A stretch of 64,000 bases of DNA from positions 1 to 64,000 of the forward strand of contig JADGDQ010000002.1 of NCBI GenBank assembly GCA_016744805.1. The letters run 5' to 3'. The notes under the pieces were generated by a model that saw only the letters and a list, made by a program, of their open reading frames with translations, was not told the DNA's origin and made no database searches. The translations under genes were made by a program, and so were the position numbers. The stretch is from Sulfurovaceae bacterium. GTDB lineage: Bacteria > Campylobacterota > Campylobacteria > Campylobacterales > Sulfurovaceae. Below, in pieces: positions 2,382 to 54,187 of the stretch (positions are counted from its first letter, which is position 1; each line of letters opens with the position of its first letter).

Positions 2382-3158
2382 TCATAAAATCTTTATCTCT
2401 TCTTGGAGCTTAATACCAAACTCTTGATAAACCAGCTCTTTTGCTAACTCTATAAGATATTTTGCATCTTTAAAAGAGCCATCCCCCAAGTTTACAAGAA
2501 AGTTTGCATGTATTTCACTCCATGCCATATCTCCTTTGCGTTCTCCTTTGAGTCCTACAGCCTCTATAAGCCGTCCTGCCGCGTCACCTACAGGGTTTTT
2601 AAATGCTGAACCTGCACTAGGGTCTTTTGGTTGGTTACTACGCAACGCAACTAAATCATCAAGGAGTTCTTGACTAAAGCCTTCTTTGACTTTAAATCTA
2701 GCCCTTGTAGCTATCCCACCCAAATGAGCAAAACGATAGCCATACTCAATATCTTCTTTTGGTATCCATTTGCCATCTATCTCTATACTCTCCAAGATAT
2801 TAAATATCTCATAAGACTTCACCCCAGCATTCATAGCCAACATCCCCCCAAGCATCCCAGGAAGCTTCGCAAAAAACTCAAACCCTGCCAAATCACTCTT
2901 GCGAGCAAAAGAGACTATCCGCCCTGTAGGCATTGACGCACCTATAGTCAATATATCCCCCTTTAGCTCTATTGTCGCAAAATCTTTACCCAACATCATA
3001 AGAGGTGGTGGAGTAGGAGAAATGAGCAAATTATTTGCCCCTCCTATAAGGTATCTATCTGTGGGTATAGTGTCACCCTTCTCTATAATGAGAACTTCTG
3101 TGGGTTGACCGATTTTGATACTGGAATAGCGAGAGAAATCTATGGTTTTTGTGTGCAT
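2382..3158 (-). CDS. murB: UDP-N-acetylenolpyruvoylglucosamine reductase MurB
   Basis: MurB is the cytoplasmic FAD enzyme that reduces UDP-GlcNAc-enolpyruvate to UDP-MurNAc in peptidoglycan synthesis. The sequence shows the N-terminal FAD-binding part (RYLIGGANNLLIS), the FFAKLPGMLGGMLAMNAG segment, the catalytic SAGSAFKNP region and an ...AWSEIHANFLVN C-terminus. At 258 residues it is the compact form usual in Campylobacterota. Its ATG overlaps the stop of the upstream HNH gene by one base (TAATG at 3156-3160), with AGGAAG just before it, so it is translationally coupled to the defence gene upstream. Identification is firm. Confidence 0.95.
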   Translation of the reverse strand: MHTKTIDFSRYSSIKIGQPTEVLIIEKGDTIPTDRYLIGGANNLLISPTPPPLMMLGKDFATIELKGDILTIGASMPTGRIVSFARKSDLAGFEFFAKLPGMLGGMLAMNAGVKSYEIFNILESIEIDGKWIPKEDIEYGYRFAHLGGIATRARFKVKEGFSQELLDDLVALRSNQPKDPSAGSAFKNPVGDAAGRLIEAVGLKGERKGDMAWSEIHANFLVNLGDGSFKDAKYLIELAKELVYQEFGIKLQEEIKIL

Positions 3159-42229: not shown

Positions 42230-43552
42230 CTATATTAGAATATTATCTAAATTAATTAAAGTTTCAATTGTGCGTTCAACTTCACTTTTATAAATTTCTG
42301 TACTATTGTAATGTGAAGCATCATTTAACAATACGCGTTTAAATGTTCTTAATTTAAGAAAACTATCTATAATCTCTTGATTTTTATCTATAGATTTTGT
42401 CTCTTCATAGTTTTTTGCTTTTTTTAATAAAGTATCTAAGTTTGAAACTTTACATCTTCTATCTAGTATCAATTCTTTGGGTAAAAAATCACAGAGTAAT
42501 TTTTCTGTATATTGTCTTAAAATATTTGCACTACATCCATAATTTTGTGTCTCTTTTTGATAGATTGCCTGAGTCATAAGTGAATTAGATTGCTTAATAA
42601 AAGGTACTTCATAGCCATCTTTTTTATTTACATATATCTCATAAGCTTTTAAATTCATCTTCTCATTTATTAAATCATACAAAGCTTTTTCATGAGTGAA
42701 GAAAAATATTTGAAAGTCACTAAATTCACTTTCTAATATTTTAATTAGACTTAACCTATTGTTCATATCTAAAGAGATAAGTAAATCATCTAAAACTAAT
42801 ATTTTGAGACTATCCTCTTCTAGCTTGTTAAACTGTTTTTTAATAATAGCAAAATAAATACTCATAGCCAATGCTGATAACCTAGCTTCATTTAGAAAGT
42901 TTTGATAATCTTCTAGCTTCTTATCAAAATACTCTATTTCCAAATTTACTTTATGAAATCCAAAATTAAAGCTTATCTTTGTAAGTTTAAAATGTTGCTC
43001 AAATTGTTCTAAAAAAATATTAATCTCATCAAACAACTCGTCTTTTAAAATCTTTTCAAAAACAGAGAAGTAATTCTCATCTTCTTCTTCTTTTAAGTTT
43101 TTTAGAATTTTATTTTGACCTATTGGATATTCAGATAATATATTTTCAAAAAACTTATATAAATTCTTTTTTTCTTCTTGTTGAGTTGAATAAGAGACTT
43201 TAAGTAAGGATTTATAATCCATTATAGGTCTAGGAATAGATAATTTACTGATAAAATCAAAATCATTCTCCAAACTCAAATGGTCACTATCTATTTTTAG
43301 TGTCTCTTCATTATTAAACTCAAACTCTAAGTAAGTATCATCTTTTTTAAATATATTCACATTCTTTGCAAATTCTTCTTCTGATAGTGTTGGTGTAGCC
43401 AAAAACTCAAAAGCCTTGTAGAGAGAACTCTTCCCACTCCCATTTTCTCCATAAAGAAGCATACCTTTTGCATTGGGTTCAAAAGTATTATTTTCCTCAT
43501 CATCTGTAAAAAATCTAAAATTATTTAGTTGTATTTTCTCTATTTTTATCAT
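42230..43552 (-). CDS. RecF/SMC-like ATPase B of the defence island
   Basis: The 440-residue ATPase has Walker A LYGENGSGKSSLYKAFEFL (about 32-50), Walker B LKILVLDDLLISLDMNNR with the unusual LDD...SLDMxNR form, and H-loop FFTHEKALYDL. A C-terminal helical domain has YGCSANILRQYTEKLL and a late NDASHYNS motif. It is clearly a shorter paralogue of ATPase A (44628-46247): both share NEARLSALAMS / NEAKLTAIALS and the same Walker B. It is the last gene of the island operon and overlaps the truncated methyltransferase gene by 4 nt. Such ATPases often license nucleases in defence systems; the role here is inference. Confidence 0.72.
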   Translation of the reverse strand: MIKIEKIQLNNFRFFTDDEENNTFEPNAKGMLLYGENGSGKSSLYKAFEFLATPTLSEEEFAKNVNIFKKDDTYLEFEFNNEETLKIDSDHLSLENDFDFISKLSIPRPIMDYKSLLKVSYSTQQEEKKNLYKFFENILSEYPIGQNKILKNLKEEEDENYFSVFEKILKDELFDEINIFLEQFEQHFKLTKISFNFGFHKVNLEIEYFDKKLEDYQNFLNEARLSALAMSIYFAIIKKQFNKLEEDSLKILVLDDLLISLDMNNRLSLIKILESEFSDFQIFFFTHEKALYDLINEKMNLKAYEIYVNKKDGYEVPFIKQSNSLMTQAIYQKETQNYGCSANILRQYTEKLLCDFLPKELILDRRCKVSNLDTLLKKAKNYEETKSIDKNQEIIDSFLKLRTFKRVLLNDASHYNSTEIYKSEVERTIETLINLDNILI

Positions 43553-44631
43553 TTCTTAACTCCATTTATTACTTTAACTACAGAAATAACTCGACTATAT
43601 ATTAAACCTCTCCCAATAGTCTTATTATTATCCAAAACCTTATACACTTCCTCTATCTTCTCACTATCAAACTCGCCTAGTACTTTGCTCACCTCATCAG
43701 AGATAAAGCAATCCCCTTTTTTCATCTCATCTGCAAAATACAAATCATACACCATACCGTTAATCACACTTTCAAATAGCGAGGCTTCTAAGCTCAAATC
43801 ATTCTCTTTGGCAAACATCACATAATCCACCAAAATCTCAAAGGGCTTTTGAGCTTCTTTTGAGATTTCAAATTTTTTTAATTTATCAATATCTTCAAAA
43901 TCTATAATAGATTTATAAAAACTTAGTACCCTATAGTTTAAAAATGAAATAATATTTAATAGTCCCATATTTTCAATTTTATGTTTTATCTCTATCTGTT
44001 TTAAAGATAAAAATTTAAACTCTTTAATAGATAAGTCATTCATCAAATAATTATAACTATTTTTATGTGTAAAATCTGTTATATTCTTGCACTTATTCGT
44101 TATTTTGCAATAGATAAAATCAAAGCTTTTATTTTCTGATTTTTGACAAGTCAATATACTTTTATCATTAAAATCAATATATTCTAAAATATTTACATTA
44201 TTTAAAATAAAATTTCTAAAATTCTTTGCGTATCGTGCTTTAGTATATTTACTATCAGTATAATAACTTAATATTCCACCCGCTTTAAGCAGTCTAAATC
44301 CTTTTTCAAATAGATATACATTCAAATCTGCTGTTTCAAAATATGATTGGTAGTTTATAAGCAAAGGCTTAATAGATTTTATTTTCTCTTGTCTCGTATT
44401 GGGTGGGTTTCCTATAATTAAATCAAAACTATTATCCAATAAGTTTTCATCTATAAAAAAATCAAAGTTTGAGACACTTACACTACTTATATTTTCAGCT
44501 TTAACATCTAAGTCTATTAGAATATCCCTATATAAGTCTATCTCATTATAGGATATCAATACTTTGATATTTTCTTTGTGTTGTATTTTTTCAACAGCAC
44601 TTTTAGATTGATATTCTAGTATATCGTTCAT
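43549..44631 (-). CDS. Truncated second adenine methyltransferase paralogue (NPPN instead of NPPY)
   Basis: The 360-residue protein matches the C-terminal half of the 1127-residue methyltransferase of the island. Residues 70-170 follow FDLIIGNPPNTRQEKIKSI...LLKAGGILSYYTDSKYTKARY, and the ends share ISKEAQKPFEILVDY. It lacks the N-terminal domain and the DPAxGSG SAM-binding motif, and the catalytic NPPY is NPPN (75-78), losing the aromatic residue that holds the flipped adenine. Most of the target-recognition region is also missing. It is most likely catalytically dead. Yet there are no frameshifts, and it overlaps both flanking ATPase genes by ATGA-type 4-nt overlaps, which suggests it is still made. 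A DNA-binding or regulatory role is possible. Confidence 0.75.
   Translation of the reverse strand: MNDILEYQSKSAVEKIQHKENIKVLISYNEIDLYRDILIDLDVKAENISSVSVSNFDFFIDENLLDNSFDLIIGNPPNTRQEKIKSIKPLLINYQSYFETADLNVYLFEKGFRLLKAGGILSYYTDSKYTKARYAKNFRNFILNNVNILEYIDFNDKSILTCQKSENKSFDFIYCKITNKCKNITDFTHKNSYNYLMNDLSIKEFKFLSLKQIEIKHKIENMGLLNIISFLNYRVLSFYKSIIDFEDIDKLKKFEISKEAQKPFEILVDYVMFAKENDLSLEASLFESVINGMVYDLYFADEMKKGDCFISDEVSKVLGEFDSEKIEEVYKVLDNNKTIGRGLIYSRVISVVKVINGVKK
43822..43868. repeat. 47-bp repeat, copy 1 (in the truncated methyltransferase)
   Basis: This segment, encoding the shared KEAQKPFEILVDY part, matches 46598-46644 at 45 of 47 positions in the same orientation. Nucleotide identity this high, in otherwise diverged genes, points to recent duplication or gene conversion. 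Confidence 0.8.
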
Positions 44632-46247
44632 AATTCATCTCTCAATTTTTTTATATTTTCAATAGCATCTTCTAGCTCTTTTTTGTAGAGTGGTACTCGT
44701 GTATCATCGTGTGACTGAGGATTAAGTATTAACGCTTTAAACTCTTCTAACATTATTAATGTTTTATTTAATCCAACTATTTCATTCTTTGAAAAATCTT
44801 TAAATCTTTTTAATTCAGTTCGTATAGTTCCTATTGTTTTTTTGTCTTCTTGACTTTCTAATTGACTTAAATCAAATTCTATAAATTTATCAAATTCATC
44901 AAAATTAACTAAGTTTCTAACTCGCTCAACTATATTTTCTTTTTCACTTAAAGAACCACTAGTTTTTGCTTTATCTATCAGTGTTTGTAGATTTTTTGTC
45001 TCACTGCATGATAAATCTCTATGATGACACACAAGAGCTTTCAATAATCTCTCTGCTTCTTTGCGTAGATAGTTAGCACAAGCTGAATAATCATGTTTTT
45101 TTAAATAATATTCTGCTTTTTCAAAATAGTCTCTATGTGGTAATATCAAAGGCTTTTCATACTCTCCCTCACTATCCAAATACATCTCAAAATATTTCCA
45201 TTTATTTTTTTCTACATAGTTAAACTTCTGTTTAGCCATTTCAAAAAAAGCTTTATCATGCGTAAGTATGATTTTTTGATACTCTTTCAAAGTTTCATCA
45301 TTGAGTAAAATATCTAAAACTTTATCACGATTACTCATATCTAAAGATACTAATAAATCATCAAGTACCAAAAACTTTAAAGGACTATTTTTGAGTTTTG
45401 TTTTCGTTATTGCGAGTCGTACAGACAGAGCAATGGCTGTAAGTTTTGCTTCATTAAAATAACTTTGAGGTCTTAATATAGGTTTATCAGGACTCTCATT
45501 TTTTAAAACAGTAAGCTCTATTTTGATTTTAGGTTTATCAAAAATTTGAGTTTCATATTTACCATCTTTAACCAATAATACTAATTTCATATCTTCATAA
45601 TTAAATGCTTTTAAATAAGTATTGGCTGGTTCATTTATATTTAAAACAATATCTTTTAAACTATTGTTAAAACTTTTCAATTTAGTTTGTAATTCAAGAT
45701 AATCATCTTTATCAGCTCTTACTCTTGGCTTCCTATCTTCTAGTTTTACTATCTCTTGCCAAAGTTCATTAAGTCCAATAAGATGTAATATTTCATATTC
45801 AAACAAATCAAATAAATCTATATCGGCTTTATGGAAGAAGTTAAAAAAACGAAATAGATATTTGTAATTGATGAAATCGCTTGTAGCAAGAGTATCTTCT
45901 ATTAATAAGTTTGAACTATTGTTTTTAACTGTAATTGTATCTTTTGAGATAATCACTTCCTCACTCTCTTCATCTACAAATAACTCTATTTTTGAATCAT
46001 TCTCATCTGCATAGATATTAACCAATGAACTATGGTTGGGAGTAGTTAGGGTTGAGTGTGTAAAATATTTTCTTATTTTATCCTTATCTTTTTTACTGCT
46101 CTGCAATAGTGTATATAAAGCCCAATATATCGTACTCTTACCACTTCCATTTTCTCCATATACCAATACATTTTTACTCTCAAAATTCAATGCTTCTACT
46201 TTATCAAAAAATTTAAAATTCTTTATCTCTAATTTATTTATTTTCAT
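44628..46247 (-). CDS. RecF/SMC-like ATPase A of the defence island
   Basis: The 539-residue ATPase has Walker A VYGENGSGKSTIYWALYTL (about 28-46), Walker B LKFLVLDDLLVSLDMSNR (near 300), H-loop ILTHDKAFFEM, and a C-terminal helical domain with YSACANYLRKEAERLL and LNPQSHDDTRVPLYKKELEDAI. There is no zinc hook or long coiled coil. It is directly coupled to the full methyltransferase (stop and start share one base) and to the truncated one (ATGA). It probably works with the methyltransferase in one complex. Compared with ATPase B it has about 100 extra residues in the middle. Confidence 0.75.
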   Translation of the reverse strand: MKINKLEIKNFKFFDKVEALNFESKNVLVYGENGSGKSTIYWALYTLLQSSKKDKDKIRKYFTHSTLTTPNHSSLVNIYADENDSKIELFVDEESEEVIISKDTITVKNNSSNLLIEDTLATSDFINYKYLFRFFNFFHKADIDLFDLFEYEILHLIGLNELWQEIVKLEDRKPRVRADKDDYLELQTKLKSFNNSLKDIVLNINEPANTYLKAFNYEDMKLVLLVKDGKYETQIFDKPKIKIELTVLKNESPDKPILRPQSYFNEAKLTAIALSVRLAITKTKLKNSPLKFLVLDDLLVSLDMSNRDKVLDILLNDETLKEYQKIILTHDKAFFEMAKQKFNYVEKNKWKYFEMYLDSEGEYEKPLILPHRDYFEKAEYYLKKHDYSACANYLRKEAERLLKALVCHHRDLSCSETKNLQTLIDKAKTSGSLSEKENIVERVRNLVNFDEFDKFIEFDLSQLESQEDKKTIGTIRTELKRFKDFSKNEIVGLNKTLIMLEEFKALILNPQSHDDTRVPLYKKELEDAIENIKKLRDEL

Positions 46248-49200
46248 TACAAACTCTCTTTTATTGGTTTAATTAATTCTTTAAAATGTATATCTATCAA
46301 AATCAAATTATTACGAATTTTATTATAAGGTTCTCTAAGTGTTTGGTAGCTTTGATGAATTATTTCAATAGATTTATCTTTATCAAGTCCTTCAATAGAA
46401 GCATAATCCTCTTTTGCATATTCTATAAATTTGATATATCCTTTCTCTTTTTCAAATTGAATAAGTCTGTTCTCAAACTCCTCCCCAAAATAAAGCTCAT
46501 AAACCATAGCATCCAGCACCTCTTCAAATTTATTGATAATATGAGAGTTTGGTACATATTCATTTATCGGCTCATCCAAAGTTTTAAGAAGCATAATATA
46601 ATCCACCAAAATCTCAAAGGGTTTTTGGGCTTCTTTTGAGATTTGTGGGATTGGGAGTTGTTCAACATAAATTTTTTTCCATCTATTTGTTCCCACTCCT
46701 GACTCTGCACATATAAAATTAAAATACCAAAATACTACTTTTGAGTTTAAAAGTGCCAATAGATATTTTAAATTTTCTCCACTTATGAAAAAGACTGTCA
46801 TCTCTAATAAATATTTAGAGCTATCCAATGTAAATTTTGGATTATCAGTTAATTCTAACCACATAATTTTTTCTTTTTCAAACTCTTCTAAATAAGCACA
46901 ATTTCTAAGGTTATAAGGAGTAACACCCTTATCACTTCTTTTTTCTAATTTATCTATATATTTATCTAAATGCTCTTTGATTATAGGATATTCATTTATA
47001 TCTATAGGTGGATTATTGTGTATATTAATCAACCACTTATCAGCAAATTCATACTCATATCTCTTAACATCTCTTCCTCTAAGTAGTGGCTTGATAACTT
47101 CACTATTTTTAATATCTTTAGCGATTAATTCATCTTTGATTTTTCCATCAATTATAAACGCTTCGTTAAATCCTGTTTTAATACCTGATTTAATCTCTAT
47201 ATTCCACTCTTTTAGTATTGGACCTTTTTTTTCCATTATCTTTTTAATGGCTAACTCTTTTTGATTCATAAATATAAATCCATCCTCATCCAAATCATCT
47301 TGAGGATAAGAAAAGCCTTTTTGAGAGATAAAGTTCTCTAAAACCTCACCTTTCCTATAGGATTTATCCACATCACAATAAGTAAAGCTTTTGGATGAGG
47401 CTGAAGCCCCACTTCCGATTTTTTTGTAACTGAAAATTGATGTAGCTACAGTAGCACTGTCAAATATCTGAATATCCTTGAAATCTATATACTCTAGTAT
47501 AGTAGTATTGTCCAACACAAACTCTCTAAACTGCTTGCCATATTTGGCTCTTGTGTATTTGTTTGAGGTGATATAACTTAGTATTCCATGTTCTTTGAGC
47601 AATCTATATCCTTGTTCAAAAAAGTAGATATAGAGGTCGGCTGTGCCGTTGTAGGATTGGTATCCCTCTATCTTGAGTCTCTCTTTGATGGCTTTTATCT
47701 TTTCGTGGCGGACATAGGGGGGATTGCCTATGACGACATCAAAACCACCATTGTTCATCACATCTGCGAAATATATCTTGTAGAAAAAGAGTTCTGTAGT
47801 AGGGCGTTGTTTTATATTTTCTATGATCTCAATAGTCTTGTTTGCTTTTTCTATAATCTCTGCTTGCTTTTTACTAAGACCATTGAAGAGGTTGACATTG
47901 GATATTTGGCTCTCTTTTTCATCTTGTTTATCTTTGAGTTTACTATCTAGTATCTCGTCAATCTCTTTTTCTATGGTCTCTTGGAGTGCTTGCTTTTTAT
48001 CGTTGTTGGCAGTTAGGTAAAAATCATTCAGAAGCTTTTGAATATTTTTTATCTTTTTGCGATTATTACCCATAAGGCTCTGTTCATTGGCTAATGGGTC
48101 AAAGCCGTCTATAGTCTCTAGCAGGCTGTTGCCTACCATTATCTTATAAAATAGATTTGGTAGAGGGCTAGGAGTCTCCTCGTCCACGACGATACTCAGC
48201 CAAAACCTGAGCTTGGCTATCTCCACAGCACTAGGCTCTATATCCACACCATAGATACTGTTTTGTATGACTGTTCTCTTGAGGTTTTGGGTTGACTCGT
48301 CACTCACAATCTCTAGGAGTGATACTATCTCATGGAGCATTCCCATAGGAAAAGCACCCGAACCTATAGCAGGATCTAGCACCTTGATCGCTACTAGGCT
48401 CTCTTTGAGTTTGGTTTTGTCTAGCGTGCTTAACTCCTTTTTGAGTACAAAATCCCTGAGTGCTTCTCTCGTCCCCATCTCGCAGGAGAATAGATAATTG
48501 ATGATAGACTCCTGACACATATAATGCACTATCTCTCTAGGAGTATAAAAAGCCCCTTTGTCTTTGCGGTCTTCGAGCAAGTCTTCAAAAACCCGACCTA
48601 GCATCTCAGGGTCGATGGCTACTTCGCTATCGTGGGGAGTATCCTCTATGACGGTAAAGTTATATTTGTCAAATGTATCAAATATCTGGCTCATCAACTC
48701 ATCATCTAGCTCATACTTCTCATGCTTGAAGATTGTATCTATCCTATCTCGCGTGAAAAGCCCACCATTGAGAAATGGCATCTTACACTCTAGCAACTCA
48801 AAATAATCATCGCTTTTTCGTCTATCGATATTGAGAGCATCGAAAAAGACAGGCTCTAAAATATCATGATAAAAGTTGCCATTTTCATTTCGATTTTTAA
48901 ATAGATGACTCATAAAGTTCTTTTTGCCATCCCCCCATTTTTCTATACTCCCTAGCCAACCTTTTTTTTGCAAAAAATAGAGAAATACAATCCTTCCCAA
49001 TAGCTTTTTTGTAAATGAACTTTTTTCTATCTCTTCATCAAAGTAGTATCGCTCAGTTAGATAATTCATACTCTCTTTGTATAGACTCTTGTACTCATAA
49101 AAAAACTCTTTAGATACCTTCTCGACAGAGAAAGCACCCTCCAATATCTCTTGGGTTATCCTACCCCTACCCAAAGCCCCTATCTGCTCTTTGGCTGTTT

Positions 49201-49630
49201 TGGTGGCTATACCTTCACCCAAGACATAGCTATATCGTTTGGCATTGGTTCTTTGTGTCTGTTTGCCATCTTTGAAATCATACGATACAAAAGTAAGTCT
49301 CCATACAGGACTATCCTCGTGATGGATAACAACTAAAACAGTATCTTTTAGTATTGGTTTTGCCAATTTACTTATCACTTGTGAAAAGCCCACTCTTTTG
49401 TTTTCTATATGAGGTGTTTTTGATTTTAGCAGAAGTACCCCTATTTCAGAATTATCATCCAAAAATGCTTCACCAAAATATCTATACTCACTAATATGTT
49501 TTTTATCACTCTCATCTAAATGGTCATTTCTATATCTACTATCTATCATCTCTATATCATCAAATGTCTCATGTAAAAATGTTACAAATATATCTTCATC
49601 AAATCGTTTACCCAAAAATTCTAAATTCAT
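46247..49630 (-). CDS. Large Eco57I-type N6-adenine methyltransferase (type IIG / BREX-like)
   Basis: The 1127-residue protein has an N-terminal domain (1-200, with WRLTFVSYDF and TNAKRYSYVLGEG) found in Eco57I-type enzymes, a helical linker, SAM motif I VLDPAIGSGAFPMGML (417-432) and motif II YGVDIEPSAVEIAKLR. Motif IV is VVIGNPPYVRHEKI (NPPY at 636-639). A C-terminal target-recognition region follows (about 760-1010). I could not find a convincing PD-(D/E)XK nuclease motif, so cutting may depend on the PLD-helicase upstream. GGAG stands before the ATG. G+C falls from about half in the part coding for the middle of the protein to about a quarter in the part coding for the C-terminal specificity region. 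Confidence 0.85.
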   Translation of the reverse strand: MNLEFLGKRFDEDIFVTFLHETFDDIEMIDSRYRNDHLDESDKKHISEYRYFGEAFLDDNSEIGVLLLKSKTPHIENKRVGFSQVISKLAKPILKDTVLVVIHHEDSPVWRLTFVSYDFKDGKQTQRTNAKRYSYVLGEGIATKTAKEQIGALGRGRITQEILEGAFSVEKVSKEFFYEYKSLYKESMNYLTERYYFDEEIEKSSFTKKLLGRIVFLYFLQKKGWLGSIEKWGDGKKNFMSHLFKNRNENGNFYHDILEPVFFDALNIDRRKSDDYFELLECKMPFLNGGLFTRDRIDTIFKHEKYELDDELMSQIFDTFDKYNFTVIEDTPHDSEVAIDPEMLGRVFEDLLEDRKDKGAFYTPREIVHYMCQESIINYLFSCEMGTREALRDFVLKKELSTLDKTKLKESLVAIKVLDPAIGSGAFPMGMLHEIVSLLEIVSDESTQNLKRTVIQNSIYGVDIEPSAVEIAKLRFWLSIVVDEETPSPLPNLFYKIMVGNSLLETIDGFDPLANEQSLMGNNRKKIKNIQKLLNDFYLTANNDKKQALQETIEKEIDEILDSKLKDKQDEKESQISNVNLFNGLSKKQAEIIEKANKTIEIIENIKQRPTTELFFYKIYFADVMNNGGFDVVIGNPPYVRHEKIKAIKERLKIEGYQSYNGTADLYIYFFEQGYRLLKEHGILSYITSNKYTRAKYGKQFREFVLDNTTILEYIDFKDIQIFDSATVATSIFSYKKIGSGASASSKSFTYCDVDKSYRKGEVLENFISQKGFSYPQDDLDEDGFIFMNQKELAIKKIMEKKGPILKEWNIEIKSGIKTGFNEAFIIDGKIKDELIAKDIKNSEVIKPLLRGRDVKRYEYEFADKWLINIHNNPPIDINEYPIIKEHLDKYIDKLEKRSDKGVTPYNLRNCAYLEEFEKEKIMWLELTDNPKFTLDSSKYLLEMTVFFISGENLKYLLALLNSKVVFWYFNFICAESGVGTNRWKKIYVEQLPIPQISKEAQKPFEILVDYIMLLKTLDEPINEYVPNSHIINKFEEVLDAMVYELYFGEEFENRLIQFEKEKGYIKFIEYAKEDYASIEGLDKDKSIEIIHQSYQTLREPYNKIRNNLILIDIHFKELIKPIKESL
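46598..46644. repeat. 47-bp repeat, copy 2 (in the full methyltransferase)
   Basis: This is the partner of 43822-43868 (two mismatches). It marks the same C-terminal segment in the intact methyltransferase and supports a tandem (methyltransferase + ATPase) duplication with a period of about 2.8 kb. Confidence 0.8.
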
Positions 49631-49804: not shown

Positions 49805-49842
49805 GTGGCGTTTCGTCCTGCCGTATGGGCGACCAACTCCCT
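49805..49842. other. G+C-rich islet of unknown nature
   Basis: These 38 bases have 24 G or C (63%), in a genome near one third. They stand in the only real gap (49631-49841) inside the defence island and touch the stop of the BECR-like gene. No tRNA, promoter or coding sense is evident. It could be a dispersed repeat, a recombination scar or a structured RNA segment. Confidence 0.4.
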
Positions 49843-50405
49843 CAAAACCATTCCAAACCATTGGGTGCTTCTTCTTTATACTCTTTTAACTGTTTTTCAT
49901 ATCTTCGTATCTCACTACGATAAATCAAATATGACGAGACCAAAAATTTATCATTGGTATGGCTCAATTTTCGTATAATCACCAAAAAATCTTTTTTGAT
50001 ATGCCAAATAATAAGATTAACCTTATTCTCTCTTTTTTGATAAAAATACTCTATATCATCATCTGTTTGCCAATTATCTATAAGTATTTTTATCCAATGT
50101 ATTCGTTTTGCTCTTGCTTCATCATATTTTCTATTTTTTTCTATCTTGTCTGGACATGGATTATTTTTATGCTTTACTTTGTTTTCTGTTATGGTAATAA
50201 TATGCCAAAACCTTTCTGGTTTAGAAACATTGTTTCCGAAAGGACAAGGACATAGTTTATCAGCTTTGACATCTATATCAAAAGAAATATCTTCTTTTTG
50301 TAAAATAGTTTGATTATCTATAAAATCTCTTTTGAAAATATTAAAAAGCTTTTCTATTCCCTCTTTATTGAGTGTCTTGATATTAAAATCTGTTAAAATA
50401 AACAC
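49842..50405 (-). CDS. Putative BECR-fold (RelE/barnase-like) nuclease
   Basis: The 187-residue protein begins with GTG, which overlaps the DUF3800 stop (TAGTG). The N-terminus has a Cys-containing CPCPFGNN segment and then RFWHIITITENKVKHK. The second half (ARAKRIHWIKILIDNW..., LIIWHIKKDFLVIIRKL...KFLVSSYLIYR) has the strand order and spacing seen in phage-type barnase/EndoU/ColicinE5/RelE-like nucleases (PBECR). No named family is certain. In this setting, between DUF3800 and a methyltransferase, it would fit as a toxic effector. Confidence 0.5.
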   Translation of the reverse strand: MFILTDFNIKTLNKEGIEKLFNIFKRDFIDNQTILQKEDISFDIDVKADKLCPCPFGNNVSKPERFWHIITITENKVKHKNNPCPDKIEKNRKYDEARAKRIHWIKILIDNWQTDDDIEYFYQKRENKVNLIIWHIKKDFLVIIRKLSHTNDKFLVSSYLIYRSEIRRYEKQLKEYKEEAPNGLEWF

Positions 50406-51076
50406 TATTTACTCACCAATAGCCATCTAAAAATATTAAATTTTTCAATCCAAGGAGCTGTGCTTATCAATTCATATCCTAGTTTAAATTCTAAATATTC
50501 AATTATAAAGTTTTTAATTGGGCTTATATGTTCTATATCTTTCCTATTTTTATAGGCGATAGCACCTATAAATAGGTCACACACTTGTAATATTTGCGAC
50601 TCTTGTGATTGTATAATAAATATATCTGTACTTCCTTTATGGTTAAAAATCTTTTTCATTTTTGCTATTCTTTTGCCTCCATTTATATCTTTGTAATCAA
50701 GATAAATTTTATAATTATTTTGACTCTCTATAAAATTTTTAATGGTATAGTGATAAACAATATAATAAAACTCATCAAAGCTATATCCATATTGTTTATG
50801 AAGTGCTTCTTTTTTATTTGGGATAAAAGTAGCTTTAAAGAGCATATCACTCTCAAAAAAATAATCAATAAGTTCGATATAAAACTCTTTTTGTTTAGCC
50901 AAAACTTTTGTCCATTTTAGTTCATTATAATAGCTATGATTGTATTTTATAGTTTTTATATGCCTATTGATTTCTTCAACTTTATCTTCGGCGATACATA
51001 TCGCTCCATTTACCATTACATTAGATTTGTCATTGAGTAGATGATTACTCTCATCACAAAATATTTTATAATTCAT
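50405..51076 (-). CDS. DUF3800 protein (RNase H-like fold, defence-associated)
   Basis: The 223-residue protein starts MNYKIFCDESNHL, the FxDES signature of DUF3800, and has ELKWTKVLAKQKEFYIELIDYFF, IYLDYKD and SQESQILQVCDLFIGAIAYKNR, with the second acidic site in QVCDLFIG. DUF3800 proteins are common in defence islands and are predicted to have an RNase H-like fold with acidic active site. It abuts the PLD-helicase gene with no gap and overlaps the next gene by one base. Confidence 0.82.
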   Translation of the reverse strand: MNYKIFCDESNHLLNDKSNVMVNGAICIAEDKVEEINRHIKTIKYNHSYYNELKWTKVLAKQKEFYIELIDYFFESDMLFKATFIPNKKEALHKQYGYSFDEFYYIVYHYTIKNFIESQNNYKIYLDYKDINGGKRIAKMKKIFNHKGSTDIFIIQSQESQILQVCDLFIGAIAYKNRKDIEHISPIKNFIIEYLEFKLGYELISTAPWIEKFNIFRWLLVSK

Positions 51077-54000
51077 CTATTTTTCTCCCCTAAAAGTCTC
51101 TGATAATTTCACTCTAATATCTACTATATCAAAGAGTGAAACTTTATTTTTTTTCTTATTTTTTTCCAAAATTTCTTTTAAAACTTTACTGCTATTTTCA
51201 TCTCTATTACCCTTTAGAGCAAGGATTTTATCTATATCTATTATACTCAAAACTCCATCTTGGAGAGCTACTTTATATGTTTTAAATAATACTTTATCTA
51301 TCACTCCACTTCTCAACCACTCTTTGAGTAAAAAGACAACCTTTTCTGATATTTTATCTGATATTTTACCCTCTGCTTTATCTTGTTTTTTGCGTTCAAT
51401 CTCATCTTCTATAAACTTTATAACCCTTGAAGTATCTATCTCTTCACACTCTATAGCTTTTTCAGTTCTATCAGCTTGAAGTGCTTTTGCCATAGTGACA
51501 AAAGTAATAGGTTTAATATCTTTTTGGCTAAGAGATAGATACCTTTTATTTTTATTTACTTCTAATGCTATATAGCTATTTTTTACTTCACCTAGCCTAC
51601 ATACAGAGGGGTTTTCTAGTTTTTTTATGGCTTCAAATTCTGCTTTATTGTTATCTCTAAATTCTCTTAGTTCTTCTAAGTAATCTAATGTTTCATCTCT
51701 CTCATTGAGTTCTTTTTGGTACTCATCAAAGAGTGTTACACTCCCTACAACTTCTTGAGTAGAATAGATTTGATTATCTTCTCCCATCATACTATGAGAA
51801 GATTGTAGCTTGACAAAGGCTTTTTGTGAGAGTTTCAAGACGGTTTCTATCTCTTCTGTAGGTTTAAAATTATGAATATATATAAAATCTTCTTTTGTAC
51901 CAATACGATTGACTCGTCCTATTCGTTGTATAAGTTTGGTTGCATTCCATGGAATATCATAGTTATAAATAATATTACTTCGGTGTAGGTTGATACCCTC
52001 TGCTAAAGTATCAGTGGTCACTATCATATTATAGTCATTTTTTTGCTTCTCTATTGAATAGTTTGCATCAAAATTCTCTTGTATCTTTTGCTTTATCTCT
52101 TCACGATTTTGGCTTGTAACAAAAAGTATTTTATCACTGTTTATGCTCTTTTTTATATATTCTAAAGTATCTATAGACTCTGTAAATACTACGATTTTTT
52201 TATTGTTTTTTACTAATTTTTCTTTTTTTACTTCTTCTTTAAATCTTGCTAGTTTTGGGTCTGTATCTATATTTTTCCATCTCTCTACAAGTCTCTGAAA
52301 TATAGTATAATCTTTGATTAAATCATCTAAAAAATTTTCTTTAAAATCATTTCTATTCAAAGTTCTAATTTTACCTTCATCATCTAATTTTTGGATAAAG
52401 TCTTCATAGTCTTCATCATTATTTTCATCATAATCTAAAATATCAGACGATTTTTTACCTAGATAGACTCTATTTTCTTTGAGGTTTGCAATAAAAGTCT
52501 CATAGCGTTTTAAGTGCCTAGCAATAGAGATTTTAAAGGCATCAAAAGAACTCTCAAATCGTTTAATAAGGAGGGTTTTCATAATCCCTGCTAATGGGTT
52601 TTTATCAAAGATATTAGAACTCTCTTTGGGATAGTGTTGTTCTCTAGCTTCCTTTGTGAGATAAGAAAGAGCATTAAATCGTGAATAGTCAAGTTCTTTG
52701 CTAATCTCTTTGGCAGTTATTTTAAAGATAATGGCTAACTCTTTATCTAGGCTATATTGATGCTCATTGGGTGCTAATACCTTTGGGATAGAAAGATTTT
52801 GCTTTTTTATATCTTTTTTGTACATATTATGATGACTAATATCATATCTTGTACGGCGTATCATTATTTCTCTAAGCACAGAGTCTCTAATCTCTTTTGA
52901 TAATTTTTTTAGGGCTATTGTATCTATGAGAGTATCAGCATTGATAATTGATTTAAACTCTAGCTCTTTTTGTTTGAAAAAGGCTTCTAAATTTCTACAA
53001 CTTTCTATGCTAGAAACTTTGGTATTTTGAAAGAGTGCAATTTGGTTATATAGGTCATTGGGTGTATTGTTTTGAGGCGTAGCAGAAAGAAGTATTACCT
53101 TTTTGTTTAGGCATATATTAGCTAATTGTTTGTATCTTGTAGCATTTTTATTTTTGAATTTATGTGATTCATCTACGATAATAAGTTGATACTCTTTAGC
53201 ATTTATTTTATGTAAAGAAGCTAAAGAGATAATAGTATAAGGAACAAATTCAAACTCTTGCATGGTCTCTTCCCATTGTATTTTTACAGCAGGAGGAATA
53301 ACAATGAGTACTTTTTGACTTAAAGTGCTTTCTATCTTTTTGAGAAGCATTGCAATAACAACTGTTTTACCAAGCCCCACCACATCTGATAAGAAAAAGC
53401 CATTATGAAGCTCTAGTTTTTCTATCCCCTCATTGACAGCTTCTATTTGATAGGAGAGTTTTTTGTACTCATTAGGTACGATAATACCCGCATCATTCAA
53501 AAAGTCAATACGAGTGCCAAAATGTTCTATAAGGAGTTTGATATAAAGCTGATAAGGTGTAATATTTTTGTTGCTAGGTAGTGGAGGTTTGAGATAAGGT
53601 CTAAAGTGCTTTTCAAAGTCATCTTCTGTAAGTTCTACAGACTCTTTCCATAAATCTTCAAAGAGCGTTAGGGCATCTTCTATATTTTTATTGTCTTTGA
53701 GTTCTGCGTTTATTTCTCTATTTTTTTCTAGTCCATTATGTGTAAGATTAGATGAACCAATAATCACAGAACCCAAATAGCTTTTACCACTTTTATCATG
53801 CTTTTGAATCCCCTCACTTCGCATAATATACATTTTGGAATGTACATCTCTATAGGGAGTAATTTTTATAGTTATTTTTTTAGATTGGATAAGCTCTTTC
53901 ATAGAGATAAAGTTATTATAGTTCTCATCACAAAACTCTATCTGAGCTTTAGCAAATTGCGATATAAGTTCTGAAGCTTCAAAGGTTGCTTTATCTGTAC

Positions 54001-54187
54001 TAATACCTATCAAAATCCGTGTATGTTCTATGTTTTTTAGACTAGAAGCTATCTTATCAAAGCCACTCATTCTAAAATAGCCTATTAAAAAATCTAAATA
54101 GTTGATATTCTTATCATGACTTAAAATATGATTTATTTTGTTTTTTAATGTATTCTCTTTTTCATTAGTAAAAAATTCTGAACTCAT
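51077..54187 (-). CDS. PLD-nuclease / SNF2-type helicase fusion
   Basis: The 1036-residue protein has an N-terminal phospholipase-D-type (HKD) domain, with VHSKMYIM (His116, Lys118) and GSSNLTHNGL plus NREINAEL (about 144-162). A SF2/SNF2-type helicase follows: Walker A FLSDVVGLGKTVVIAML (266-281), DESH box (339-342), LLSATPQNN, then the C-terminal helicase lobe with TTDTLAEGINLHRS and RIGRVNRIG. This PLD plus SNF2 helicase combination recurs in defence islands, and as separate proteins (DrmC, DrmD) in DISARM. It is the likely DNA-translocating and cutting component and heads the minus-strand island operon. Confidence 0.85.
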   Translation of the reverse strand: MSSEFFTNEKENTLKNKINHILSHDKNINYLDFLIGYFRMSGFDKIASSLKNIEHTRILIGISTDKATFEASELISQFAKAQIEFCDENYNNFISMKELIQSKKITIKITPYRDVHSKMYIMRSEGIQKHDKSGKSYLGSVIIGSSNLTHNGLEKNREINAELKDNKNIEDALTLFEDLWKESVELTEDDFEKHFRPYLKPPLPSNKNITPYQLYIKLLIEHFGTRIDFLNDAGIIVPNEYKKLSYQIEAVNEGIEKLELHNGFFLSDVVGLGKTVVIAMLLKKIESTLSQKVLIVIPPAVKIQWEETMQEFEFVPYTIISLASLHKINAKEYQLIIVDESHKFKNKNATRYKQLANICLNKKVILLSATPQNNTPNDLYNQIALFQNTKVSSIESCRNLEAFFKQKELEFKSIINADTLIDTIALKKLSKEIRDSVLREIMIRRTRYDISHHNMYKKDIKKQNLSIPKVLAPNEHQYSLDKELAIIFKITAKEISKELDYSRFNALSYLTKEAREQHYPKESSNIFDKNPLAGIMKTLLIKRFESSFDAFKISIARHLKRYETFIANLKENRVYLGKKSSDILDYDENNDEDYEDFIQKLDDEGKIRTLNRNDFKENFLDDLIKDYTIFQRLVERWKNIDTDPKLARFKEEVKKEKLVKNNKKIVVFTESIDTLEYIKKSINSDKILFVTSQNREEIKQKIQENFDANYSIEKQKNDYNMIVTTDTLAEGINLHRSNIIYNYDIPWNATKLIQRIGRVNRIGTKEDFIYIHNFKPTEEIETVLKLSQKAFVKLQSSHSMMGEDNQIYSTQEVVGSVTLFDEYQKELNERDETLDYLEELREFRDNNKAEFEAIKKLENPSVCRLGEVKNSYIALEVNKNKRYLSLSQKDIKPITFVTMAKALQADRTEKAIECEEIDTSRVIKFIEDEIERKKQDKAEGKISDKISEKVVFLLKEWLRSGVIDKVLFKTYKVALQDGVLSIIDIDKILALKGNRDENSSKVLKEILEKNKKKNKVSLFDIVDIRVKLSETFRGEK

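What the first reader, a model, noticed from the sequence alone, without database searches (positions are those of the whole stretch)
42230..49630. Tandem duplication of a (methyltransferase + RecF-like ATPase) module
The four genes MTase (1127 aa), ATPase A (539), truncated MTase (360) and ATPase B (440) form two paralogous pairs in the same order. Both ATPases share the unusual Walker B LDDLLxSLDMxNR and a late SH-containing C-terminal motif. Both MTases share ISKEAQKPFEILVDY and, at the DNA level, a 47-bp stretch with 45 identities (43822-43868 and 46598-46644). All junctions overlap (1 or 4 nt). I know of no named defence system with this doubled arrangement, so it may be a new type of restriction-like system with catalytic and non-catalytic subunits.
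Basis: partly seen in the sequence, partly recalled or inferred. Interest (0 to 1): 0.85.

Follow-up and report, generated by a model that had tools for sequence, protein, structure and literature searches.

The report
Two ATPase cassettes behind one methyltransferase
A bacterial anti-virus (restriction-like) operon in a Sulfurovum-like bacterium carries two different methyltransferase-ATPase pairs that came from two different lineages and met by recombination at one short shared sequence, which also reveals a detachable tail that appears to plug the ATPase onto the methyltransferase.

Summary
The four ORFs, their overlaps and the 45/47 repeat are real. They form the 3' part of a seven-gene operon: PLD-SNF2 helicase, DUF3800 and PDC-M04B cargo, MT1, AT1, MT2, AT2. 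The tandem-duplication reading fails. AT1 and AT2 belong to different clades (AU p=2.5e-6), as do the MT1 and MT2 C-termini (p=6.6e-8), and each has its nearest relatives in single helicase-MT-AT loci elsewhere. Across 47 MT genes, a ~100-aa C-terminal tail is present exactly when an ATPase gene follows (9 of 9 independent contrasts). In Campylobacterota the tail, not the catalytic part, tracks the ATPase phylogeny (rho 0.72 against -0.18 and 0.12). The tail is therefore probably the ATPase-docking module, inherited as a [tail+ATPase] cassette. MT1 is a mosaic: its core resembles AT2-type enzymes, its tail AT1-type, and identity switches exactly at the shared KPFEILVDY joint. MT2 is a dead stub (no SAM motif, NPPN, no target-recognition domain) with an intact AT2-type tail. 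A second genus holds the same TRD-less MT2 (dN/dS 0.25) in a decayed locus; another genome has an independent full-length doubled locus. Best model: recombination gave two ATPase cassettes, with MT2 kept as a non-catalytic adaptor.

The parts
51077..54187 (-). HEL: PLD (HxK) nuclease-like domain + SNF2 helicase, 1036 aa
   Evidence: Pfam PLDc_2, SNF2-rel_dom, Helicase_C; H116, K118 and the helicase motifs invariant in six family members
50405..51076 (-). DUF3800 protein, PADLOC PDC-M04A (cargo)
   Evidence: PDC-M04A E 2.6e-69, DUF3800 E 9.5e-13; not seen in the other loci mapped
49842..50405 (-). PDC-M04B protein (cargo)
   Evidence: PDC-M04B E 9.4e-28
46247..49630 (-). MT1: full-length type IIG-like N6-adenine methyltransferase with target-recognition domain
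   Evidence: Eco57I E 1.4e-42, TaqI_C; motif DPAIGSGAF and NPPY intact; PADLOC REase_MTase_IIG E 8e-165
46250..46624 (-). MT1 C-terminal tail (codons 1003-1127), AT1-type docking module
   Evidence: 91/88% aa/nt to L195 just after the joint, 14/36% to L050; blastn match to L195 begins at codon 1003
46598..46642 (-). Joint in MT1 (ISKEAQKPFEILVDY), one of two direct repeats
44628..46247 (-). AT1: Rad50/SMC/RecF-like ATPase, 539 aa
   Evidence: SMC_N E 1.9e-17; clade with L034/L053/L035
43549..44631 (-). MT2: catalytically dead, TRD-less methyltransferase stub with full C-terminal tail, 360 aa
   Evidence: no motif I, NPPN in place of NPPY, TRD deleted; AF2 tail pLDDT about 90, residues 1-61 below 50
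43552..43857 (-). MT2 C-terminal tail (codons 259-360), AT2-type docking module
   Evidence: 66% to the L050 tail; C-term tree with L050/L183/L184
43822..43866 (-). Joint in MT2, second direct repeat, 2776 bp from the first
42230..43552 (-). AT2: Rad50/SMC/RecF-like ATPase, 440 aa (natural length of its clade)
   Evidence: 69% to L050 ATPase of 444 aa; AF2 pLDDT 85, Foldseek to Rad50/SMC heads

Best explanation
The locus is an ATP-dependent restriction-modification-like defence operon of the helicase-methyltransferase-ATPase kind. MT1 reads and methylates a DNA site (N6-adenine), and the PLD-SNF2 helicase is the likely translocase/nuclease. A Rad50-like ATPase docks on the methyltransferase through a detachable ~100-aa C-terminal tail and probably gates the switch between methylation and attack. 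Tail and ATPase are inherited together as a cassette. In this strain recombination at the KPFEILVDY joint brought a second cassette: MT1 combines the catalytic core of an AT2-type enzyme with an AT1-type tail plus AT1. The displaced AT2 cassette survives behind MT2, which has shrunk to a non-catalytic stub that keeps only a partial methyltransferase fold and the tail, and most likely serves as an adaptor for AT2. Shown from sequence: cassette structure, mosaic joint, different ancestry of the two pairs, loss of MT2 motifs. Inferred: physical docking, ATPase role, adaptor role of MT2, defence function.
For: Helicase-MT-AT is the standard architecture in Campylobacterota and some Bacteroidota. 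ATPase tree and AU test. MT C-tail tree and AU test, against core and motif-IV trees in which MT1 sits with AT2-type L050/L184 and L051. Tail present in 28/28 readable MTs with an ATPase and 0/19 without; 9 of 9 phylogenetically independent contrasts, p=0.0039. Mantel in Campylobacterota: tail-ATPase rho 0.72 (p 5e-4), N-terminal domain-ATPase -0.18, motif IV-ATPase 0.12. MT1 identity switches from L050-like to L195-like exactly at the joint. MT2: tail branch 0.25, like L050's, but motif-IV branch 1.06 against about 0.2. The same TRD-less form is in L189 of another genus, dN/dS 0.25, Fisher 1.8e-6. ORF and 4-nt overlaps intact.
Against: No complex was modelled and no experiment exists; co-inheritance can reflect linkage, since tail and ATPase gene are adjacent. 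The co-occurrence of tail and ATPase across the tree argues against linkage alone. The L189 copy lies in a decayed locus, so MT2 is not indispensable. The stub part of MT2 alone shows only marginal constraint (Fisher p 0.054). MT2 residues 1-55 match nothing.
Confidence: 0.6

Rival explanations
1. Decaying remnant: MT2-AT2 is the leftover 3' end of a displaced system, still open by chance and recency; only helicase-MT1-AT1 works.
For: MT2 lost motif I, NPPY and the TRD; fast motif-IV branch; the related L189 locus is itself decayed with a helicase frameshift, IS-like insertion and MT2-AT2 fusion; G550 retains only a broken tail before its AT2-like gene.
Against: Tail evolves at a normal rate; dN/dS 0.25 between two TRD-less copies; AT2 keeps all family-invariant residues; reading frame and 4-nt coupling intact in spite of several large deletions.
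Confidence: 0.27
2. Tandem duplication of an MT-AT module in place, followed by divergence.
For: Same gene order and homology of both pairs; near-identical 45-47 bp.
Against: AU tests reject sisterhood of ATPases (p 2.5e-6) and tails (p 6.6e-8); parental types occur singly in other genomes; identity is confined to the joint.
Confidence: 0.03
3. MT2-AT2 acts as an antagonist or brake: a dead decoy that competes with MT1-AT1 for the helicase and prevents self-restriction.
For: MT2 lacks catalysis and DNA-recognition domains but keeps the docking tail and half of the methyltransferase fold.
Against: No direct evidence; its tail belongs to the AT2 clade, so it should not compete for AT1.
Confidence: 0.1

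Closest known systems
Hma (helicase, methylase, ATPase; PADLOC, PMC8565338)
   Same: Three-gene logic helicase-methylase-ATPase with an SNF2 helicase; HEL matches HmaA over the helicase core only
   Different: Both HmaB models tested find nothing in this whole genome; Hma is described as m5C-type while MT1 is an N6-adenine type; HmaC not among listed matches of the ATPases
Type IIG restriction-modification enzymes (PADLOC REase_MTase_IIG, PDLC03596)
   Same: MT1 matches full-length-type models at 8e-165
   Different: Coupled to a PLD-SNF2 helicase and a Rad50-like ATPase; family consensus of the N-terminal domain shows no clear ExK
DISARM class 1 (DrmD, DrmMI)
   Same: SNF2 helicase and Eco57I-type methyltransferase match DrmD and DrmMI models
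   Different: DrmD score 121 against cut-off 610; no DrmA/DrmB/DrmC among the operon proteins
MADS (MAD3 ATPase)
   Same: All 28 ATPases match the mad3 model
   Different: Score 21.6 against cut-off 420; other MADS genes not found in the operon
BREX PglX/BrxX
   Same: Methyltransferase fold
   Different: No PglZ or BrxC among the operon proteins; BREX_1 score 91 against cut-off 500
DUF262 (GmrSD_N)-ATPase gene pairs
   Same: Same ATPase family, found next to GmrSD_N genes in Campylobacterota
   Different: No methyltransferase; ATPases form a separate clade

Membership tests
Hma | HmaA helicase | tested here: inconclusive
   PDLC00659 E 6.5e-25, but over the helicase core only, 545-778
Hma | HmaB methylase | tested here: not met
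   PDLC00660 and PDLC00661 find no match in the whole genome
Hma | HmaC ATPase | tested here: inconclusive
   not among the best 25 listed for AT1, nor among the 14 families for AT2, nor among the first 25 families across 28 ATPases; the model was not searched on its own
DISARM class 1 | DrmD at curated cut-off | tested here: not met
   120.6 against 610 bits
DISARM class 1 | DrmA/DrmB/DrmC in the locus | tested here: not met
   none of the seven operon proteins is one
BREX | PglZ and BrxC | tested here: not met
   none among the operon proteins
MADS | MAD3 at curated cut-off | tested here: not met
   21.6 against 420 bits
Type IIG R-M | fused methyltransferase and TRD | tested here: met
   Eco57I + TaqI_C, PDLC03596 E 8e-165
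Type IIG R-M | active N-terminal PD-(D/E)xK nuclease | tested here: inconclusive
   consensus LDDxKEIGFFEFxS lacks an obvious ExK; no activity test
PDC-M04 (PADLOC candidate) | adjacent M04A (DUF3800) and M04B | tested here: met
   E 2.6e-69 and 9.4e-28, adjacent genes
Tandem duplication model | the two pairs are sisters | tested here: not met
   AU p 2.5e-6 (ATPases) and 6.6e-8 (tails)

The most novel reading that the evidence does not exclude
The locus is an ATPase switch. The two in-frame 45-bp joints are direct repeats 2776 bp apart, so one crossover deletes the MT1 tail, AT1 and the MT2 stub and leaves an 1101-aa MT1 hybrid with the AT2 tail next to AT2 (in frame). The cell population could thus change the ATPase partner of one restriction system while keeping its DNA specificity, with MT2 stabilising the waiting ATPase.
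Probability: 0.2. Interest if true: 0.75.

Novelty: new variant of a known kind. Interest (0 to 1): 0.56.

Why it matters
Many defence systems pair a methyltransferase with a Rad50/RecF-like ATPase, yet how the two connect is, to my knowledge, unknown. Here comparative data point to one short tail as the connector, predict which ATPase goes with which methyltransferase, and show a recombination point where partners are exchanged. That makes modular assembly of restriction complexes directly testable by tail swaps. It also offers a rare case of a methyltransferase reduced to what looks like a docking adaptor.

Tried and rejected
Tandem duplication: rejected by AU tests. AT2 as a truncated ATPase: rejected, since its clade is naturally 440-476 aa in L050, L183, L184 and L122. 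Hma membership: HmaB absent. DISARM, BREX and MADS: below cut-offs and partner genes missing. MT2/AT2 in viral contigs: nothing; plasmids hold only distant ATPases, 27-31% identity. MT2 as a silent TRD donor: rejected, it has no TRD. The extra 614-617 aa MTase in L035/L053 as an MT2 counterpart: rejected, it has intact motif I and NPPY and is very distant. Assembly chimera at the repeat: unlikely, since the longest exact run in the repeat is short (24 bases by eye) and L189 independently links the MT2 stub to the AT2 tail across the joint, but reads could not be checked. The paper searches for MADS and PDC-M04 gave nothing useful.
Full report
Observation. They are the last four genes of a seven-gene minus-strand operon: PLD-SNF2 helicase (HEL, 51077-54187), DUF3800 protein (PDC-M04A), PDC-M04B, MT1, AT1, MT2, AT2. 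Upstream lie a triosephosphate isomerase-like and a phosphoglycerate kinase-like gene (read from the translations); downstream lies a glycan-type gene cluster. Its nearest named relatives in the helicase search are mostly Sulfurovum and other Campylobacterota MAGs, so the Sulfurovum-like label is an inference.

What the parts are. MT1 is a full-length type IIG-like N6-adenine methyltransferase with motif DPAIGSGAF, NPPY and a TaqI-like specificity domain. MT2 keeps only the second half of the methyltransferase fold and the C-terminus. It lacks motif I, reads NPPN where MT1 has NPPY, and lacks the whole specificity domain. Its first 55 residues match nothing in the MT set and are predicted with pLDDT below 50. 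AT1 and AT2 are ATPases of the Rad50/SMC/RecF head type. The AT2 model (pLDDT 85) matches Rad50 and SMC heads, with an extra C-terminal helical part. All residues invariant across 28 family members are kept in both.

The standard system. Searches of Campylobacterota genomes and of one genome per bacterial species show that the usual form is a three-gene unit, helicase-MT-AT, in Campylobacterota and some Bacteroidota; many Bacteroidota have helicase-MT without an ATPase. Cargo genes sit between helicase and MT: SLFN_AlbA_2 in L053, YhcG nuclease in L088, DUF3800 plus PDC-M04B in the window.

Two lineages, not a duplication. In the ATPase tree AT1 groups with L034, L053 and L035, and AT2 with L050, L117, L045 and others. 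Holding AT1 and AT2 together is rejected, p=2.5e-6. The tree of MT C-termini gives the same split: MT1 with L034/L195, MT2 with L050/L183/L184; p=6.6e-8 against sisterhood. In trees of the catalytic part, however, MT1 sits with L050 and L184, the AT2-type enzymes, and with L051 in the motif-IV tree.

The tail as a docking cassette. From the conserved KPFEILVDY stretch onward, the MTs that are followed by an ATPase gene have 96-122 residues; those without have 36-76, or in two cases an unrelated long extension. L037 reads as masked N there, L061 ends at the contig edge, and L100 and L035_11 are a fragment and a distant MTase; these were left out. Tail and ATPase presence agree in 47 of 47 MTs and in 9 of 9 independent contrasts on the core tree, p=0.0039. 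Among Campylobacterota pairs the tail distance correlates with the ATPase distance (rho 0.72, p 5e-4), while the N-terminal domain (-0.18) and the motif-IV part (0.12) do not. The simplest reading is that the tail binds the ATPase and that [tail+ATPase] moves as one cassette. Adjacency alone could give part of the correlation, but not the presence/absence pattern.

The joint. MT1 is L050-like up to the joint (70% aa/77% nt in the last 20 codons) and unrelated just after it (14/36%); against L195, a locus in the same genus, the order is reversed (30/52% before, 91/88% after). The blastn match of MT1 to L195 starts at nt 3007, the first base of codon 1003, K of KPFEILVDY. L045 and L195 show the same kind of switch at the same place with other partners. 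A plausible origin is integration by homologous recombination of an AT1-type copy into an AT2-type MT gene; that route is inferred.

Is MT2 functional? For: the tail evolves at the normal rate while the motif-IV part is about five times faster, as expected of a protein kept for its tail. A TRD-less MT2 copy in G511 (L189, another genus; 89% nt) differs with dN/dS 0.25, Fisher p 1.8e-6; tail p 2e-5, stub part p 0.054. Against: that locus is decayed, with a helicase frameshift, an apparently inserted element and an MT2-AT2 fusion, so MT2 can be lost. Two further multi-ATPase loci exist: G397 with helicase-MT-AT-AlbA_2-MT-AT and both MTs full length, and G554 with MT-AT-AT.

Mechanism. Shown: gene content, motifs, modular inheritance, mosaic structure. 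Inferred: MT1 provides specificity and methylation, the helicase translocates and cuts through its PLD domain, the ATPase docked on the tail controls the response, and MT2 holds AT2. A direct prediction follows: a crossover between the two joints deletes 2776 bp and yields an in-frame 1101-aa hybrid MT with the AT2 tail next to AT2. This would switch the ATPase without changing DNA specificity; it was not tested.

Known systems. No curated cut-off of a named system is reached: helicase 121 against 610 (DrmD) and 124 against 1100 (NF042964), MT1 91 against 500 (BREX_1), AT1 22 against 420 (MAD3). The logic resembles Hma (PMC8565338), but both HmaB models find nothing in this genome. I file it as a new variant of a known kind: a helicase-methyltransferase-ATPase R-M-like system with two ATPase cassettes.

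Limits. The genome is an assembly of 94 contigs of about 93% completeness; reads were not available. Alignments of the fast-evolving TRD region are uncertain. The trees and tail analysis were built after the pattern was noticed, so the p-values are not from pre-planned tests. No complexes were modelled.

Noticed in passing
L068:17127-19182; L107:15803-17647; L102:15505-17821; L072:10049-10846; L098, L103, L104: Bacteroidota helicase-MT loci carry inverted repeats (33-393 bp, 85-100%) between the MT gene and the stretch downstream, in several cases with an inverted MT/TRD fragment, as expected for specificity switching by inversion.
   Followed up: partly
L039, L041, L043, L044, L046, L180, L191, L194: ATPases of the same family but without an MT lie directly behind GmrSD_N/DUF262 genes, a two-gene unit seen in many Campylobacterota; two identical-scoring copies occur in G328 (L039, L040).
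   Followed up: partly
L035:6761-8614; L053:12666-14510: A second, motif-intact N6 methyltransferase of 614-617 aa follows the ATPase gene in two helicase-MT-AT loci.
   Followed up: partly
L209:1-3090 (G554): MT with AT2-type tail followed by two tandem AT2-type ATPases (about 65% and 51-55% to AT2); the contig ends inside the second.
   Followed up: partly
L225, L226, L227, L228: MT plus AT2-like pairs (MT about 1240-1270 aa in L225, L226, L228) with no recognisable PLD-SNF2 helicase match nearby, suggesting that MT-AT can also work without it.
   Followed up: no
window 49842-51076: DUF3800 + PDC-M04B pair embedded between helicase and MT1, not seen in the other mapped loci of this family.
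   Followed up: partly
L185, L186 (G412): AT2-like ATPases next to unrelated genes without a MT tail, apparent orphans.
   Followed up: partly
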